Below are positions 7,402 to 14,411 of a stretch of 14,411 bases of DNA, piece by piece. Below the pieces are notes generated by a model. That model was not told where the DNA came from and did not search any database. It was given only the letters and a program-made list of their open reading frames with translations. A program made the position numbers and the translations under genes. Each line of letters begins with the position of its first letter. The stretch's first letter is position 1. Source of the stretch: Mycobacterium sp. (lineage in GTDB: Bacteria > Actinomycetota > Actinomycetes > Mycobacteriales > Mycobacteriaceae). Location of the stretch: NCBI GenBank assembly GCA_023264755.1, contig JAHFVB010000051.1:1-14411 (forward strand). The letters run 5' to 3'.

Positions 7402-7884
7402 ATGGCGCTGAAGACCGACATCCGCGGAATGGTCCACATCTACCCCGACTACTTCGTGGTCGGCCGGGAGAAGGTCCGTGAGTACGCCAAGGCCGTCAAG
7501 TCGACCGATCCCGCCAACTACGACGAGCAGCTCGCCGCCGAGCTCGGCCACCCGAATCTGTTGGCTCCGTTGACGTTCACCTCGGTGTATGCCCTGCTAG
7601 TCCAGCAGGACTTCTTCCGGCACGTCGACGTCGGCATCGAAACGATGAACATCGTGCAGGTCGATCAGCGGTTCGTCTACCACAAGCCGATCCATCCGGG
7701 CGACAAGTTGTGGGCCCGGCTCGAGATCCACTCGGTCGAGGAACGATTCGGTGCCGACATCGTCGTGACCAGGAACGTCTGCACCGACGAAGACGGCGAC
7801 CTCGTCATCGAGGCGTTCACCACGCTGATGGGCCAGCAGGCCGGCGAGACCGTGGCGTTGGGGAGTCTCCAGCGCGGCGCCTGA
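7402..7884 (+). CDS. HadC-like subunit of (3R)-hydroxyacyl-ACP dehydratase (MaoC-like hot-dog fold)
   Basis: This 160-aa protein closely resembles HadC of the mycobacterial FAS-II system, which dehydrates (3R)-hydroxyacyl-AcpM during meromycolic acid elongation. The N-terminus MALKTDIRGM, followed by YPDYFVVGREK, APLTF (55-59), FFRHVDVGIETM, IVQVDQRFVYHKP and DKLWARLEIHSVEERFGAD, all recall HadC from memory. In the HadAB and HadBC heterodimers the catalytic His/Asp lie in HadB, so this subunit should be inactive alone and need a HadB partner encoded elsewhere. No hadA or hadB adjoins it, so it is probably an additional paralogue rather than part of the hadABC operon. The start ATG has GGAG 6 nt upstream. 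It could serve a side pathway instead of core mycolate synthesis. Confidence 0.85.
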   Translation: MALKTDIRGMVHIYPDYFVVGREKVREYAKAVKSTDPANYDEQLAAELGHPNLLAPLTFTSVYALLVQQDFFRHVDVGIETMNIVQVDQRFVYHKPIHPGDKLWARLEIHSVEERFGADIVVTRNVCTDEDGDLVIEAFTTLMGQQAGETVALGSLQRGA

Positions 7885-9483: not shown

Positions 9484-10581
9484 CTAGTTGGCCGGTGCGG
9501 GATGCGCGCGGTAGAACTCGAGGTGGCGGCGCGCGGACTGCTCCCACGTCAACGACGCCGCCAAGGCCCGGCCGCCTGGCCGCGCCCGCCCCTGGGAAAG
9601 CGCTTCGGCGAGAGCCGCGGCGAACTCCCCGGGAGTCGACGCGTAGCTCACCGTCTCGCCGAATACCTCACGCAACACGGGCAACTCACGCGTGACGACG
9701 GGCCGGTCGGCCGCCAGCGCCTCCATGGCTGCCAACCCGAACCCCTCCTTGGTCGACGGGAAGGCGAACGCCGCCGATGCGGCGACCAGGCTGGGCAGGT
9801 CGTCATCCTCGACCGCTCCGAGGATGACGGGCTCGACGCCGAGCTCGACACACCGGGCGTCGAACGCTGCGCGGTACTCGCGGTAGTCGAACAACGTCTC
9901 GCCGCCCGCGATGACCAGCCGAACATCCGGAAATTGTTGCCGTAGTTCGTGATACGCCGAAATCAAGTCGATGGTGCCCTTGCGCGGTTCGATGCCGCCA
10001 ACGGCCAGCACGTAGCGGCCCAGCCGTTCACGCCAGCGCTCCCGAGCAGCCGTGGCGGCGGGATCGTCGGCAGCTGCGTCGATGAAGCGTTGCGCCCGAA
10101 CGCCATTCGGGATGACCGTGGGCGACAGTCCCCACCCCGCCCGGACCTCTGCAGCGACGGCCGCCGACACGCAGATGCGGGCGTAGGGCTGCACCACCGC
10201 CTTCTCGTGGCACTCCACCAGCACCGGCGTGGTGAACTCGTCGAGGTGGTGAATGGTGCGGACACAGGTGCCCACCGCGTTGGCACTGATGCAGTCCTGA
10301 GCGTGCACGACGTCGTATTCGTCCGGGGTGAAGGCGGTCCGCATCAACTCGATCGACCGCACGATCCGGTCGGTCACCGACTCCTCGCCGCGGTCGGGAA
10401 AGTCCACCAGCCGGACCCGCACCCGCGGATCGACGTCGCGGAAGAAGCCGCGGTCGCCCTGGCGGGCCAACGACCACACCGTCACGTCGACACCCAACTC
10501 GGCCAGGGCCTCCGCGAGGTTGAGCGTGTGCACCACGCCACCGCGGGGCTTGGTCGAGTAGGTGAGCAAGGCGACGCGCAC
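9484..10581 (-). CDS. GT4-type glycosyltransferase, MSMEG_0565 family (Nit1C-type cluster)
   Basis: This 365-aa GT-B fold glycosyltransferase probably transfers a sugar from a nucleotide-sugar donor to the product of the neighbouring cluster; neither donor nor acceptor is known. The N-terminal domain opens with MRVALLTYSTKPRGGVVHTL, containing the glycine loop. The C-terminal donor-binding domain has VLAVGGIEPRKGTIDL (191-206, with R200/K201), VRLVIAGG, and the E-x7-E motif KEGFGLAAMEAL (E279 and E287) that defines GT4. The start is GTG 10581-10579 with GAGGA 7 nt upstream, inside the end of the preceding gene. Only 2 bp separate the two genes, so they are surely co-transcribed. It is the last gene of the operon and is followed by a hairpin region. 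Confidence 0.92.
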   Translation of the reverse strand: MRVALLTYSTKPRGGVVHTLNLAEALAELGVDVTVWSLARQGDRGFFRDVDPRVRVRLVDFPDRGEESVTDRIVRSIELMRTAFTPDEYDVVHAQDCISANAVGTCVRTIHHLDEFTTPVLVECHEKAVVQPYARICVSAAVAAEVRAGWGLSPTVIPNGVRAQRFIDAAADDPAATAARERWRERLGRYVLAVGGIEPRKGTIDLISAYHELRQQFPDVRLVIAGGETLFDYREYRAAFDARCVELGVEPVILGAVEDDDLPSLVAASAAFAFPSTKEGFGLAAMEALAADRPVVTRELPVLREVFGETVSYASTPGEFAAALAEALSQGRARPGGRALAASLTWEQSARRHLEFYRAHPAPAN

Positions 10582-10583
10582 GG

Positions 10584-11456
10584 TCAGGTCCTCGGAGGAG
10601 CGCTCGCGCGGAGCCCGGCGGGACCCAACCGGGTGTCGTAGGCATCGGTCCGCCGCTCGGCCAGGTGATTCAACACCTTTCTGGCCCTGGCGATCTCGGC
10701 TTCGACGTCGAGAGTGACCTTGGCCAAGCCGCCCTTGGAACCGGTGCTGGCCAACACGTCACCACCCGGCCCCACTACCTTGGCCTGACCCAGGAACCGC
10801 AGCGAACCCATCACGCCGGTCTGGTTCGACGACACCACCACCACCTGATTCTCGGCGGCGCGAGCACAGTCGTAGAGGTCGAAGAGCCTGGACTGCCGGT
10901 CGGCCGGCAGCCGCGAGGCGCGGTCGGTCACGCTGGCCGGCCACGCCGAGAGCGCGGCGATGACCTGCGCGCCGTCCAGAGCCAGGGCGCGCGCCGATTC
11001 CGGGAAGGTCTTGTCGTAGTCGATGAGCATGCCCAGCCGTCCCACCGGGGTGTCGAAGGCGGCGAACGAGTCGCCCGCCAGATAGGCCAGGCCCTCGCCG
11101 GCCGGTTGGTGCACCTTGCGGTGGATGCCCAGCACCCCATCCCCCGACACGCAGATGGCCGCGTTGTACCGGCCCGCCCCGGCCGCTTCCGCGTAACCCA
11201 CGCAGACCGTCATCGGCCCGGCAGCGGCGATGACGGCCGCCAGCTCGGGGCCATCGGGATCCAGCGCGGGCGGTTGGTCGTGCGGATCAGGCGCCAGCAG
11301 GTCACCGAGATAGCCACCCAGGCAAGCATCGGGGAACACCAGCAACTCGACGCCCTCCCGGGCGGCCGAATCGATGATGCCGACGACCTTCGCCACCCCG
11401 CGGTCGACGTCCCGACCGAAGTTCCCGGCGATGGCACCGATGGTCACCAGTGTCAT
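10584..11456 (-). CDS. Carbon-nitrogen hydrolase (nitrilase-superfamily) homologue lacking the catalytic cysteine, MSMEG_0566-like
   Basis: This 290-aa protein has the nitrilase/amidase superfamily fold: an opening TIGAIAGNFGRDVDRGVAKV, YNAAICVSGDGVLGIHRKVH, and C-terminal AAENQVVVVSSNQTG. Active members use a Glu-Lys-Cys triad plus a second Glu. Here the Lys (K114 in HRKVH) and second Glu (E121, aligned as E-x7-G-D) are kept. The first Glu is Asp43 (FPDACLGG) and the nucleophile position is Asp146 (GMLIDYDKTFPE, where the family has GxLICYDxxFPE). The codons were checked as GAT (11330-11328) and GAC (11021-11019). The frame is intact, so this is not simple decay. It lacks the CWE motif expected of true Nit1/Nit6803 nitrilases. 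Its start lies 36 bp after the upstream gene, and its stop is 2 bp before the glycosyltransferase. Confidence 0.9.
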   Translation of the reverse strand: MTLVTIGAIAGNFGRDVDRGVAKVVGIIDSAAREGVELLVFPDACLGGYLGDLLAPDPHDQPPALDPDGPELAAVIAAAGPMTVCVGYAEAAGAGRYNAAICVSGDGVLGIHRKVHQPAGEGLAYLAGDSFAAFDTPVGRLGMLIDYDKTFPESARALALDGAQVIAALSAWPASVTDRASRLPADRQSRLFDLYDCARAAENQVVVVSSNQTGVMGSLRFLGQAKVVGPGGDVLASTGSKGGLAKVTLDVEAEIARARKVLNHLAERRTDAYDTRLGPAGLRASAPPRT

Positions 11457-11492: not shown

Positions 11493-12926
11493 TCAGGCCC
11501 TGCCCAACCCGGTCACGTCCCGCGCGACGGCCGTCGTCGTGACACCGTCGGGCCAGCGCAGCCGGACGCCGCGCTCGCCGGTCAGCCGGCCACACGTCGC
11601 AGTGACCACCCCGTCGGGAGCCCCCGCCCGCGTCGCACCCGGCCGATCGGCCGTCAACATGGCGTAACCCGGGAAGCAGGTCAGCCAGTCGCCCATCTCG
11701 GCGCCGGCTGGCCGCGGCACCCGGGCCACGTCCAGTTCGGCCCCGGTGCCGCTGGCCTCCGCCAACATCCCCACGGTCCCGACGACCCCGGCCATGCTGA
11801 CGTCCTTGGCCGCCCGCGGCGCCATCCGAGCCACCAGGGTCGAGAGCTCGGCCAACTCGTCCGGGCCGCGAGTGCTACTCGAATCCCATTGCCTGCCATG
11901 ATGACCCGCCCGCCAGCCGCCGTTCAGATCGGCGGTCAGCCGCAGCGCGTCGCCCGCCGCTCCACCACCGGCGGGAATCGGGCGCGAGGTGCGTCCGAAC
12001 GCCGTCACGGCCAGTGCGGCCGGCACCCCCAGTTGGGTATGGCCGCCCAACACCGGAATCCGCCAGGCCTGCGACGCCCGTGCCAGGCCGCGCACGATGC
12101 GCGTCAACAGCGAGCGGGTGGGCGCACCGACGGCGTCCAGCAGACCGGTTGGCGCAGCGCCCATCGCCGTGAGGTCGTTGACGTTGACCAGCACCGAACA
12201 CCACCCCGCCCACTCCGGATCGCGTTCCACCATCGACGGAATGATTGCATCACACGCGGCGACGATGTCGCTTTCGGGGAGCGGCACGCCGTCGTCGCCG
12301 AGGAAGCCGGTGGGCCCGAGCCCACCCGGCACGCTCTGCAACGGGGCCAGGGCGTCGCCGAGGAACGACTTGGTCGCATCGGCCAGGCGCTGCATCCGGT
12401 GAAGCGGCCAGCGCACCAGCGCGTGCGGTTGGCCCGCCACCAGGCATTCGCCGTGGTGCTCCCAGCCGAGCGCCCCGAACAACCCCGCGTAGCGGCGCTG
12501 CACGGTGGCCTCGAACCGCAGTACGCCCGCGGATTCGGCGTGCGCGCACGCGGCCCTCACCAGCGCCGGGCCGACGCCGGTGGACCGGGCGGGCGCGACG
12601 GTGACCAGTCGACTGCCCGTCCACCAACCGAGGTCGGGAGCGCATACCGGGGCCAGTCGCACCCCGCCGAGCACGGTTCCGTCGGGGGCCGTCGCGACCA
12701 ACACGACGGTGCGCGGATCGTCGTCGACGTCGTCGGAGTCGGTGCGCGCGAAGAGCTTCTGATCGACCACGAAGGCTTCGTGACGCAACCGCCGGTAGTC
12801 GGCGAGCTCGGCCGGGCCGGCCGGATGGATCAGGAAGCCCGGTGCGGGGGCCGCGTGCGCGCGGGTCCCCGCGAGGATCGACAGTTCCCGACGGCGTTGG
12901 TGCGCTTCGGCATTCGTCGGATTCAT
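11493..12926 (-). CDS. Fused GNAT acetyltransferase and AIR-synthase-like protein (MSMEG_0567 / Sll0786-Sll0787 type)
   Basis: This 477-aa two-domain protein belongs to the Nit1C-type cluster. Residues about 30-155 form a GNAT acetyltransferase: GGVRLAP (87-93), the acetyl-CoA loop R114-S-T-G-V-G119 and GLFGALGWEHHGE. Residues about 185-477 resemble AIR synthase/PurM-type ATP-binding proteins: LVNVNDLTAMGAAP (246-259, D251), GGHTQLGVP (294-302), KDVSMAGVVGTVGMLAEASG (374-393) and GDWLTCFPGYAML. In Synechocystis the two parts are separate proteins, Sll0786 and Sll0787. The acyl acceptor and phosphoryl substrate are unknown. ATG 12926 was chosen; an in-frame GTG at 12935 overlaps the radical SAM stop as GTGA and would add three residues. 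Either way translation is probably coupled. A much longer upstream open frame is rejected because it overlaps the radical SAM gene. Confidence 0.9.
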   Translation of the reverse strand: MNPTNAEAHQRRRELSILAGTRAHAAPAPGFLIHPAGPAELADYRRLRHEAFVVDQKLFARTDSDDVDDDPRTVVLVATAPDGTVLGGVRLAPVCAPDLGWWTGSRLVTVAPARSTGVGPALVRAACAHAESAGVLRFEATVQRRYAGLFGALGWEHHGECLVAGQPHALVRWPLHRMQRLADATKSFLGDALAPLQSVPGGLGPTGFLGDDGVPLPESDIVAACDAIIPSMVERDPEWAGWCSVLVNVNDLTAMGAAPTGLLDAVGAPTRSLLTRIVRGLARASQAWRIPVLGGHTQLGVPAALAVTAFGRTSRPIPAGGGAAGDALRLTADLNGGWRAGHHGRQWDSSSTRGPDELAELSTLVARMAPRAAKDVSMAGVVGTVGMLAEASGTGAELDVARVPRPAGAEMGDWLTCFPGYAMLTADRPGATRAGAPDGVVTATCGRLTGERGVRLRWPDGVTTTAVARDVTGLGRA

Positions 12927-12931
12927 CGCGC

Positions 12932-13987
12932 TCACCCACCCACGCTCTGCAGCATGCTGCACGCTCCGCAGGCCGCGCAGCCGGCCTTCTGAGCCGCGCC
13001 CGTCATGTCGGCCAGCCGAAGCGCGGCGGCGACCTCGCGGGACGCCTTGTCGACCGTGGCCGCATCCGGAGCCCGCGCCCCGTCGACGTCGACCGCCAGC
13101 GTGCCGGGGTGCGGCCGGAACGGCACCACGAAGGGGTAGACGCCCATCGCAATCAGTTCCCTTGCGCCGCTGATCAATTCCTCCGGGTCCTCGCCGAGTC
13201 CGACCAGCAGGTAGGTCGACACCTGGTTGCGGCCGAAGATCCGGACCGCCTCCTGCCACGCAGCCCGGTACTGCGCCAGCGGCACGGTCGCCTTGCCGGG
13301 CATCCAGCGCCGCCTGACTTCGTCGTCGAGGGATTCGACGTGGATGCCGATGGCGTCGGCCCCCGCGGCGCGCAGCTCGGCGAGCACGGAAAGGTCGGCC
13401 GGCGGTTCGCACTGCACCTGGATCGGCAGCTGCGGCACGGCCGCCTTCACGGCGCGCACGCACCGGGCCAGATGCCGGGCGCCGCGGTCTGGGCCTGCCG
13501 ACGTCCCCGTCGTCAGCACCAGCTGGGCGACGCCGTCCAACCGGACGGCGGCCTCGGCCACCTCGGCGAGTTCGGCGGGGCGCTTGACGGCGGTGGTCGC
13601 CCCCGAGCGCAGCGATTCCTCGATCGAGCAGAACCGGCAGCGCTGGTCCTCGCCGTAACGGATGCAGGTCTGCACGACGGTGCTGGCCAGCACGTTGCGC
13701 CCGTGCAGCTTGGCGATCTTCTCGTAGGAGACGCCCTCGGCGGTCTGCAGATCGTAGAACTTGGGCCGTTGCACGACTTCGACGTCCAGCCCGGTGTCCT
13801 CGCCGTCGAGCAGCACGCGGCCGCCGTCGAGCACGAACGGACTCTGGGGATTGCGCGGAATGGCCGCGTTGAGCCCGTCGATCACCAGGTGGCCGTCGGC
13901 GCTGGGGCCCGCACCCGCGGTGCGGCTGACCGGTGGCCGGCCGCGCAGTCCGAGCAGGGCCAACTCGACGCGGGTGGTGGTAGACAT
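12932..13987 (-). CDS. MSMEG_0568-family radical SAM protein
   Basis: This 351-aa radical S-adenosylmethionine enzyme of the Nit1C-type cluster has an unknown reaction. The cluster-binding motif is C108-x8-C117-x2-C120, within VQTCIRYGEDQRCRFCSIEES, rather than the usual C-x3-C-x2-C. The TIM-barrel core continues with QLVLTTGTS, QVQCEPPADL, DAIGIHVESLDDEVRRRWMPGK and STYLLVGLGEDPEEL, resembling BioB/lipoate-synthase-like enzymes. A second cysteine group, C337-x2-C340-x2-C343, closes the protein and could bind an auxiliary cluster. ATG 13987 has AGGGGGG (14000-13994) with a 6-nt spacer, and that ribosome binding site overlaps the stop of the upstream flavoprotein. This gives an 11-bp gap and tight coupling. 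The stop overlaps or nearly abuts the next gene. Confidence 0.93.
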   Translation of the reverse strand: MSTTTRVELALLGLRGRPPVSRTAGAGPSADGHLVIDGLNAAIPRNPQSPFVLDGGRVLLDGEDTGLDVEVVQRPKFYDLQTAEGVSYEKIAKLHGRNVLASTVVQTCIRYGEDQRCRFCSIEESLRSGATTAVKRPAELAEVAEAAVRLDGVAQLVLTTGTSAGPDRGARHLARCVRAVKAAVPQLPIQVQCEPPADLSVLAELRAAGADAIGIHVESLDDEVRRRWMPGKATVPLAQYRAAWQEAVRIFGRNQVSTYLLVGLGEDPEELISGARELIAMGVYPFVVPFRPHPGTLAVDVDGARAPDAATVDKASREVAAALRLADMTGAAQKAGCAACGACSMLQSVGG

Positions 13988-13998
13988 GCCGTACCCCC

Positions 13999-14411
13999 CT
14001 AGCGCGCCACGGCCAGGCGCGGCGCGCCGTGCCGACGATGGCGTTCGACGATGGTGTCGGCCACGTACCGGGCATCGCGGTCGATGCCGAGGAAGCGGCC
14101 CGAACCCCAGGTGTGCATCCACGGCAACCCGATGAAGGTCAGCCCGTCGACACTCGTGACGCCGCGGTTCTGCATGGGCCGGCCGGCTCCGTCGAAGGCG
14201 CTGGCCTCGATCCAGCGGTAGTCGGGCCGGTACCCGATGGCCCACACGATGCTCGTCACCCCCTGCTCGGCCAGGTCGAGCTCCGTCGGCTCCACCTCCG
14301 GCTCCCATACCGCGCGGTAGCGCGTCGCCGCTGGTGCGGTGATGCCCTCGCGCTCGATGTAGGCGTCGATGTCCGCACAGATCGAGTTGTAGACCGAATC
14401 GGCCTTGTCCA
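13999..14411 (-). CDS. MSMEG_0569-family flavin-dependent oxidoreductase, C-terminal part (partial)
   Basis: The last 136 residues of a flavoprotein monooxygenase-like enzyme enter from the right edge. The frame is open from position 14409, starting DKADSVYNSICADIDAYIERE, to the TAG at 14001-13999. The segment SIVWAIGYRPDYRWIE is the ATG-containing motif near the C-terminus of FAD/NAD(P)-dependent monooxygenases. FIGLPWMHTWGSGRFLGIDRDARYVAD resembles the MSMEG_0569 family end. The N-terminal FAD-binding and NADP-binding motifs lie outside the window. It is the most upstream visible gene of the minus-strand cluster and is followed after 11 bp by the radical SAM gene. Its substrate is unknown. 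Confidence 0.9.
   Translation of the reverse strand, partial: DKADSVYNSICADIDAYIEREGITAPAATRYRAVWEPEVEPTELDLAEQGVTSIVWAIGYRPDYRWIEASAFDGAGRPMQNRGVTSVDGLTFIGLPWMHTWGSGRFLGIDRDARYVADTIVERHRRHGAPRLAVAR

What the first reader, a model, noticed from the sequence alone, without database searches (positions are those of the whole stretch)
10584..11456. Nitrilase-superfamily protein with Asp in place of the catalytic Cys and of the first Glu
Sequence: the superfamily motif around the nucleophile reads GMLIDYDKTFPE, with Asp at residue 146 encoded by GAC, and the first acid is Asp43 in FPDACLGG. Lys114 and Glu121 are conserved and the frame is intact over 290 aa. Knowledge: carbon-nitrogen hydrolases require the Cys to form the thioester intermediate. 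Inference: this member of a conserved metabolic cluster is a pseudoenzyme (binding or scaffolding role) or uses different chemistry, for example with an Asp nucleophile or as a partner of the radical SAM or AIR-like proteins. A codon-level Cys-to-Asp change needs two substitutions, which argues against a single sequencing error.
Basis: partly seen in the sequence, partly recalled or inferred. Interest (0 to 1): 0.75.

Follow-up and report, generated by a model that had tools for sequence, protein, structure and literature searches.

The report
Conserved nitrilase lacking its cutting cysteine
A protein built like a nitrilase has an aspartate exactly where the essential cysteine should be; the swap is an old, strictly kept trait of a family in actinobacteria that lives beside a normal, cysteine-bearing sister gene, so it has probably been turned from a cutting enzyme into something else.

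Summary
The 290-aa carbon-nitrogen hydrolase homologue at 10584-11456 (-) has Asp146 at the nucleophile position and Asp43 at the first-Glu position; Lys114 and Glu121 are kept. It is neither an error nor a lone oddity: Asp146 is in 128 of 128 distinct full-length relatives, while a second paralogue, mostly in the same clusters, has Cys in 136 of 136. Each Asp-type genome checked also has a second, Cys-type gene. One branch of the tree separates the Asp group. The cluster is the actinobacterial relative of Nit1C, called gpr in Mycobacterium smegmatis, where the gene in this position is annotated as an amidase that might feed nitrogen assimilation (PMC6039565). Segments around the Asp-type active site change about half as fast as in the Cys paralogue and carry their own invariant residues, so the site seems in use, not decaying. 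My best reading is a neofunctionalised pseudo-nitrilase whose reshaped pocket binds a pathway intermediate. New Asp- or metal-based chemistry is not excluded. Substrate, partners and function were not shown.

The parts
10584..11456 (-). Asp-type nitrilase-fold protein ('D-nit', position of MSMEG_0566), 290 aa
   Evidence: PF00795 113.3 bits against cut-off 23.2; TIGR04048 only 31.6 against 502.6; model pLDDT 90.4
11019..11021 (-). GAC codon of Asp146 at the catalytic-Cys position
   Evidence: Asp codons in 127 of 127 other distinct full-length D sequences (GAC 123, GAT 4)
11328..11330 (-). GAT codon of Asp43 at the first catalytic Glu position
   Evidence: D 123, H 4, G 1 of 128
11115..11117 (-). 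codon of Lys114, the conserved catalytic Lys position
   Evidence: K in 128 of 128 D and 136 of 136 C sequences
11094..11096 (-). codon of Glu121, the second Glu position
   Evidence: E in 125 of 128 D and 136 of 136 C sequences
9484..10581 (-). MSMEG_0565-family GT4 glycosyltransferase, directly downstream
   Evidence: TIGR04047 472.3 bits, cut-off 259.85; same neighbour in 140 of 141 loci
11493..12926 (-). GNAT + AIR-synthase-like fusion (MSMEG_0567); start codon inferred
   Evidence: TIGR04050 492.3 and TIGR04045 72.2 bits, scanned as 11493-12875
12932..13987 (-). MSMEG_0568-family radical SAM protein; start codon inferred
   Evidence: TIGR04043 503 bits, cut-off 303.7, scanned as 12932-14104
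13999..14411 (-). C-terminal part of the MSMEG_0569-family flavin oxidoreductase, cut by the end of the window
   Evidence: TIGR04046 149.5 bits over profile positions 281-381 of 400, under its cut-off because partial

Best explanation
SHOWN: actinobacterial gpr/Nit1C-like clusters hold two nitrilase-fold paralogues, one with the canonical E-K-E-C residues and this one, whose Asp146 never varies in the set read and whose members form one side of one branch. INFERRED: an old duplication, then one Cys-to-Asp change; the Asp-type protein cannot run the thioester chemistry of nitrilases and amidases. It has become a pseudo-nitrilase whose reshaped but strictly constrained pocket (D146, K114, D43, E121 and its own invariants such as T150, R179, Q188, R190, L191, K241) binds an intermediate of the cluster's pathway without hydrolysing it, and shields it or passes it on. 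From gene linkage and rates I think its working partners are more likely the core of the cluster (0572, radical SAM, GNAT/AIR, glycosyltransferase) than the active nitrilase, which tends to travel with the flavin oxidoreductase.
For: D146 and K114 in 128 of 128 distinct D sequences; never Ala, Ser, Asn or Gly at 146. D group one side of a branch, SH-aLRT 91, under the 95 star. Low dN in the motif segments I chose as active-site segments: 0.099 against 0.186 in the Cys paralogue, with similar values elsewhere (0.339 against 0.372); median dN/dS 0.33 against 0.42. 27 of 40 D-specific invariant columns lie in residues 144-241, hypergeometric p 1e-5, region chosen after seeing the data. Residues differ between the paralogues (188 Q/W, 191 L/R, 201 A/L), which suggests different ligands. 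62 of 62 D genomes of the order sample have a second match (counted) and 32 of 32 in the genus sample. By contrast the unclustered copies L207 and L208 have lost K114 and part of the loop.
Against: No ligand, substrate or product is known, and 'binds without hydrolysing' is inferred from the missing Cys alone. Residue 43 can be D or H (both could serve as a base) and D146 never varies, which a catalytic site would also show. Among close relatives the Cys paralogue is slightly the more conserved of the two. The link to the core is weak: D-GT partial correlation is only 0.12, Proteobacterial Nit1C clusters have the GT and no annotated second nitrilase, and in G568 the D gene stands beside 0572 with no GT or close radical SAM near it.
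Confidence: 0.5

Rival explanations
1. The site is catalytic with new chemistry: Asp146 works as acid/base or nucleophile, or Asp/His43, Glu121 and Asp146 hold a metal, next to Lys114.
For: D146 and K114 invariant in 128 of 128; residue 43 is D or H, both able to act as base or metal ligand, in 127 of 128, and the canonical Glu is never seen there. The four H43 rows (L051, L074, L075, L184) fall in three places of the tree, some forks being weak. Active-site segments more constrained than in the Cys paralogue.
Against: One member has G43, two have V121 and one has D121 with D146 kept. No nitrilase-superfamily enzyme with an Asp nucleophile is known to me (recall).
Confidence: 0.23
2. The D-type protein is a non-catalytic subunit that builds or regulates a hetero-oligomer with the Cys-type nitrilase.
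For: The two paralogues co-occur in all D genomes checked; in 21 of 141 loci the C gene is the nearest cluster gene upstream of D; in G568 D, 0572, C and 0569 stay together without the other cluster genes nearby, if its two overlapping contigs are joined there; superfamily members oligomerise (recall).
Against: Partial correlation of pairwise distances D-C 0.06, against 0.61 for D-0572 and 0.76 for C-0569 over 111 loci; 652 of 6105 locus pairs have D at 72% identity or more but C at 62% or less, so D tolerates quite different C proteins; in R. trifolii the C gene sits with 0569 on another contig while D stays with the core, and in Kitasatospora arboriphila the C gene with 0569 is likewise not in the D cluster.
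Confidence: 0.12
3. It is an auxiliary protein of the downstream glycosyltransferase, as the P450-like EryCII (no Cys heme ligand) is for EryCIII.
For: D-nit lies directly upstream of the 0565 GT in 140 of 141 loci, in 127 of these within 60 bases by match ends; the D-GT pair stands apart from the rest together in L136; the C-only clusters L209/L210, L215 and L216 show no close GT, though L209/L210 are short contigs. EryCII/EryCIII: PMC3391682, passages read.
Against: In EryCII the old active site is mobile, whereas here it is the most constrained part; GT without a second nitrilase in 4 of 5 Proteobacterial plasmid clusters read by annotation; D without an adjacent GT in L169; D-GT partial correlation 0.12.
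Confidence: 0.13
4. Sequencing error or decaying pseudogene.
For: The window's genome is a fragmented draft of 70% completeness in 636 contigs.
Against: The same Asp in every relative read; open frame; dN/dS 0.33.
Confidence: 0.01

Closest known systems
Pyrococcus horikoshii amidase PH0642 (1j31; C146A variant 6ypa), carbon-nitrogen hydrolase PF00795
   Same: Same fold, Foldseek E 7e-22 to 6ypa_A with TM 0.75/0.83; same positions for Glu/Asp43, Lys114, Glu121 and residue 146
   Different: Cys nucleophile and Glu base there; Asp at both here; 24-27% identity in the Pyrococcus-type rows at the top of the list
Cys-type paralogue of the same cluster (position of MSMEG_0571)
   Same: Same fold (model), same cluster, 43-58% identity, K114/R113/H116/D148/K149 shared
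   Different: E, K, E and C intact in 136 of 136; different residues at 188, 191, 201; tends to travel with 0569
Nit6803 family nitrilase of Nit1C clusters (TIGR04048)
   Same: Nitrilase gene in a cluster with 0572, 0568, GNAT, AIR, 0570, 0569
   Different: Window protein scores 31.6 against a cut-off of 502.6; the Nit6803 clusters read show one nitrilase, not two
M. smegmatis gpr operon MSMEG_0565-0572
   Same: Same eight gene families; 48 of 154 loci have the order 0572 > C-nit > 0570 > 0569 > 0568 > 0567 > D-nit > 0565; msmeg_0571 is listed as a carbon-nitrogen hydrolase and msmeg_0566 as an amidase
   Different: MSMEG_0566 is called a putative aliphatic amidase there; its own sequence was not fetched here
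EryCII / DesVIII, P450-like partners of glycosyltransferases
   Same: Enzyme fold without its essential Cys, working with a GT
   Different: Other fold; there the old active site is mobile, here it is the most conserved part

Membership tests
Carbon-nitrogen hydrolase superfamily (fold and homology) | PF00795 match and the nitrilase fold | tested here: met
   113.3 bits, cut-off 23.2; model matches solved members
Catalytically competent carbon-nitrogen hydrolase | Cys nucleophile | tested here: not met
   Asp146 in 128 of 128
Catalytically competent carbon-nitrogen hydrolase | first Glu (general base) | tested here: not met
   D 123, H 4, G 1 of 128
Catalytically competent carbon-nitrogen hydrolase | Lys and second Glu | tested here: met
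   K 128 of 128; E 125 of 128; the window has both
Nit6803 family nitrilase (TIGR04048) | score over the curated cut-off | tested here: not met
   31.6 against 502.6 bits; a Cys paralogue scores 35.9
Nit1C / gpr gene cluster | 0572, 0570, 0569, 0568, GNAT, AIR genes with a nitrilase homologue | tested here: met
   window has 0565, D-nit, 0567, 0568, part of 0569; 0572 and a C-nit piece on contig C360; 0570 was not looked for in this genome beyond these two stretches, but is present in most related loci
Pseudoenzyme | no catalytic activity | not testable with these tools
   needs purified protein
Glycosyltransferase auxiliary protein | binds and activates the GT | not testable with these tools
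   adjacency only

The most novel reading that the evidence does not exclude
The Asp-type nitrilases are enzymes of a new mechanistic class within the nitrilase fold: a carboxylate site (D146 with D/H43, E121 and K114), possibly metal-binding, that does a non-hydrolytic or differently hydrolytic step in a nitrogen-starvation pathway of actinobacteria.
Probability: 0.23. Interest if true: 0.8.

Novelty: new variant of a known kind. Interest (0 to 1): 0.55.

Why it matters
The gpr/Nit1C cluster has a stress phenotype in M. smegmatis and a cyanide-assimilation role in Pseudomonas, but the papers read here give no full chemistry for it. Showing that one of its two nitrilase-type genes lacks the nucleophile argues against the nitrogen-release role suggested for it, and the rates and gene orders hint at two modules (active nitrilase with flavin oxidoreductase; Asp-type protein with the rest). 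It also gives a clean pair of paralogues, one with Cys and one with Asp, for asking what a nitrilase pocket does once the nucleophile is gone.

Tried and rejected
Sequencing error: rejected by conservation. Alternative Cys nucleophile: Cys85 is the only Cys invariant in at least 97% of D sequences, but two lack it and it lies in a strand. Membership in Nit6803: rejected. Co-evolution with the Cys paralogue: no signal. Link of the GT with D-nit as a general rule: fails in Proteobacteria. A first gene-order script used an out-of-frame reference for the GNAT/AIR gene and was redone; counts given are. I first took G568 as having two 0572 copies and D apart from C; one search showed that the ends of its two contigs (L169, L212) share 516 identical bases, so they may be one cluster, and I withdrew that. 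In Kitasatospora the two contig ends (L072, L229) share 99 identical bases in 0572 and then differ, as at a repeat. In one search locus L289 was scored on a neighbouring gene. Metal geometry could not be measured: no model coordinates are in the box. Paper searches for a nitrilase homologue without its Cys found nothing; one search returned two M. smegmatis papers. M. smegmatis was not among the named loci. The C-only clusters number three genomes.

Full report
OBSERVATION. The reading frame 11456-10584 on the minus strand is open for 290 aa. Pfam gives one family, carbon-nitrogen hydrolase PF00795 (113.3 bits). In the alignment to the nearest solved relatives, Pyrococcus horikoshii PH0642, Asp146 stands on the nucleophile column, where 6ypa and 7ovg show Ala (6ypa is titled the C146A variant) and 1j31 shows Cys. 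Asp43 stands on the first Glu, Lys114 on Lys, Glu121 on Glu. The codon for Asp146 is GAC at 11021-11019. The fold model from a 32-row alignment has mean pLDDT 90.4 and pTM 0.89, with residue 146 opening the helix after strand 139-145. Foldseek finds 6ypa first (E 7e-22).

THE TRAIT IS OLD AND FIXED. All 120 listed relatives in the protein database have D43, K114, E121 and D146; the search found 5099 proteins at E 0.001 and listed 120. After removal of identical and partial sequences, 127 plus the window remain: D146 128 of 128. Loci L101-L127 give 27 of 27 DKED and the genus sample 26 of 26; both overlap in part with genomes already counted. A Cys-to-Asp change needs two base changes (TGC/TGT to GAC/GAT; codons counted).

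A CYS-BEARING SISTER GOES WITH IT. In 130 of the 143 loci a second homologue (43-58% identical) with Cys lies nearby. The other 13 are loci cut by a contig end, short loci, or the reorganised clusters L065 (Rhodococcoides trifolii) and L072 (Kitasatospora arboriphila). I searched the genomes of nine of these 13 loci plus one control (L129): 10 of 10 have the Cys gene. The remaining four (L087, L104, L105, L169) belong to genomes G074, G701, G709 and G568, each with two matches. In the order sample, 65 of 397 genomes match at E 1e-40; three are not D genomes (G427 and G435, unclustered copies; G559, one Cys gene in two pieces), which leaves 62, all with a second match; the second gene's residues were read for all but G533 and G709. 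In the genus sample all 32 of 198 genomes with a match have exactly two; there the second gene's residues were not read for the newly found genomes. In the phylum sample 9 of 396 match; five have D and C, four have only Cys types. In this draft genome a piece of the Cys paralogue is on contig C360, in two reading frames at a contig end, beside 0572; whether the break is real or an assembly fault cannot be told. Unclustered copies in G427 and G435 (L207, L208) look worn: K114 and part of the loop are gone and L207 has Ser at 146. That is what decay looks like, and it is not what the Asp clade shows.

ORIGIN. A tree of 59 rows puts the 32 Asp representatives on one side of one branch (SH-aLRT 91, under the 95 star); the Cys rows need three changes because rows that I had put in the outgroup set lie among them. 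Long outgroup branches make the root unsure. One gain of Asp is the simplest reading.

THE POCKET SEEMS IN USE. Mean pairwise identity is 0.69 for D and 0.64 for C over 6328 pairs of the same loci; D is the more conserved in 73% of pairs, but among close pairs C is slightly more conserved. In the motif segments I chose as active-site segments, mean dN is 0.099 for D and 0.186 for C; elsewhere 0.339 and 0.372; median dN/dS 0.33 and 0.42 (synonymous sites are partly saturated and the pairs are not independent, so use these as relative values). Of 40 columns invariant in D only or switched between types, 27 fall in 144-241 (p 1e-5; region picked after seeing the list); C-only invariants do not gather there, 7 of 23. 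Residues 179, 188, 190, 191 and 241 are fixed in D and different or freer in C. This fits a binding or catalytic site with its own ligand. It does not fit loss of function, nor the EryCII case, where the former active site is mobile (PMC3391682, passages read).

THE CLUSTER. The window holds, on the minus strand, part of 0569 (flavin oxidoreductase), 0568 (radical SAM), 0567 (GNAT + AIR-like), this gene, and the 0565 glycosyltransferase. The commonest arrangement, 48 of 154 loci, is 0572 > C-nit > 0570 > 0569 > 0568 > 0567 > D-nit > 0565; at least five others exist. D-nit is directly upstream of the GT in 140 of 141 loci. The exception, L169 (G568), has D behind 0572 and no GT in 9.5 kb; its contig end shares 516 identical bases with the contig of C-nit and 0569 (L212), so 0569, C-nit, 0572 and D may be one run there, and the genome's only TIGR04043 match is of the diverged type. 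In L065 the Cys gene has left the cluster and sits with 0569 on another contig. In L072 it is also outside the D cluster, with 0569; the two contigs part at 0572. Over 111 loci with all eight parts, partial correlations of pairwise distances are C-0569 0.76, D-0572 0.61, D-radical SAM 0.25, D-GT 0.12, D-C 0.06. Exchange of whole modules between species could produce such figures without physical contact. Five Proteobacterial plasmid clusters read by their annotation have a single Nit6803 nitrilase each and a GT in four; in the plasmid collection only four records, all Rhodococcus, match this protein at 60-80% identity. Three actinobacterial genomes have a cluster with one Cys type and neither D-nit nor a close GT: L209/L210 (short contigs), L215, L216. 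In the order sample 60 of 62 D genomes have a TIGR04043 match at E 1e-40; in the two others, G483 and G539, the contig ends inside the cluster.

WHAT IS IN PRINT. Nit1C was described with a single nitrilase gene among seven genes by Podar et al. 2005 (PMC1199592, passages read). Nit1C is linked to cyanide assimilation in Pseudomonas (PMC11049912, passages). In nitrogen-starved M. smegmatis, msmeg_0566 transcript is 8.94-fold and msmeg_0571 48-fold higher in wild type than in the glnR deletion strain, and GlnR binds upstream of msmeg_0572 (PMC4222082, passages and section 6); msmeg_0566 also appears in a table of nitrogen-regulated genes with 2.96 (PMC4617892, one passage). The operon 0565-0572 (gpr) is needed for GlnR-dependent peroxide resistance, and its authors call 0566 a putative aliphatic amidase that could contribute to nitrogen assimilation (PMC6039565, passages and sections 15 and 17). 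I found no paper that notes the missing Cys (searches; open-licence papers only).

MECHANISM. Shown: loss of Cys, single-branch grouping, constrained active-site segments, company of a Cys-type sister and of the cluster. Inferred: no thioester chemistry; the pocket binds a pathway compound; the pathway makes a small, possibly glycosylated molecule that affects redox balance. I hold the binding-protein reading at 0.5, new Asp- or metal-based chemistry at 0.23, GT auxiliary at 0.13, a subunit of the active nitrilase at 0.12. These overlap in part: a binding protein may also hand its ligand to the GT.

Noticed in passing
L200-L203, L245-L253, L255 (unnamed actinobacterial genomes): A third, diverged cluster type with 0568-like radical SAM and GNAT, and in most loci 0572, AIR and 0565-like GT (35-49% identity), has no nitrilase hit. 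In four loci inspected (L245, L247, L250, L253) an amidohydrolase-like protein (PF04909 in the two scanned, L245 and L250) lies between 0572 and the radical SAM gene, the nitrilase slot of Nit1C.
   Followed up: partly
L082 (contig C360 of the window's genome): The window genome's Cys-type paralogue lies at a contig end in two overlapping reading frames beside 0572: a frame break, real or from assembly.
   Followed up: partly
Cys-type genes, 136 distinct full-length sequences: PMC6039565 proposes that the UGA of MSMEG_0571 is read as selenocysteine; across these relatives the Cys-type gene ends in TGA 125, TAG 10, TAA 1, and in L128 its end overlaps the next gene's start, which fits plain translational coupling better.
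   Followed up: partly
L227, L229, L072: In R. trifolii and Kitasatospora the Cys-type gene sits with 0569 outside the D cluster; in Kitasatospora the two contig ends share 99 bases at the 3' end of 0572 and then differ, which hints at two 0572 copies.
   Followed up: partly
L037: A contig labelled Acidobacteriaceae carries the actinobacterial cluster at 78% identity to the window protein; probably a mis-binned contig.
   Followed up: no
L207, L208: Unclustered relatives in two genomes of family f86 show worn active sites (loop deletion, K114 lost, Ser at 146 in L207), a useful contrast to the Asp clade.
   Followed up: partly
window 7402-7884 (+): HadC-like dehydratase subunit, 263.8 bits against a cut-off of 221.
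   Followed up: no
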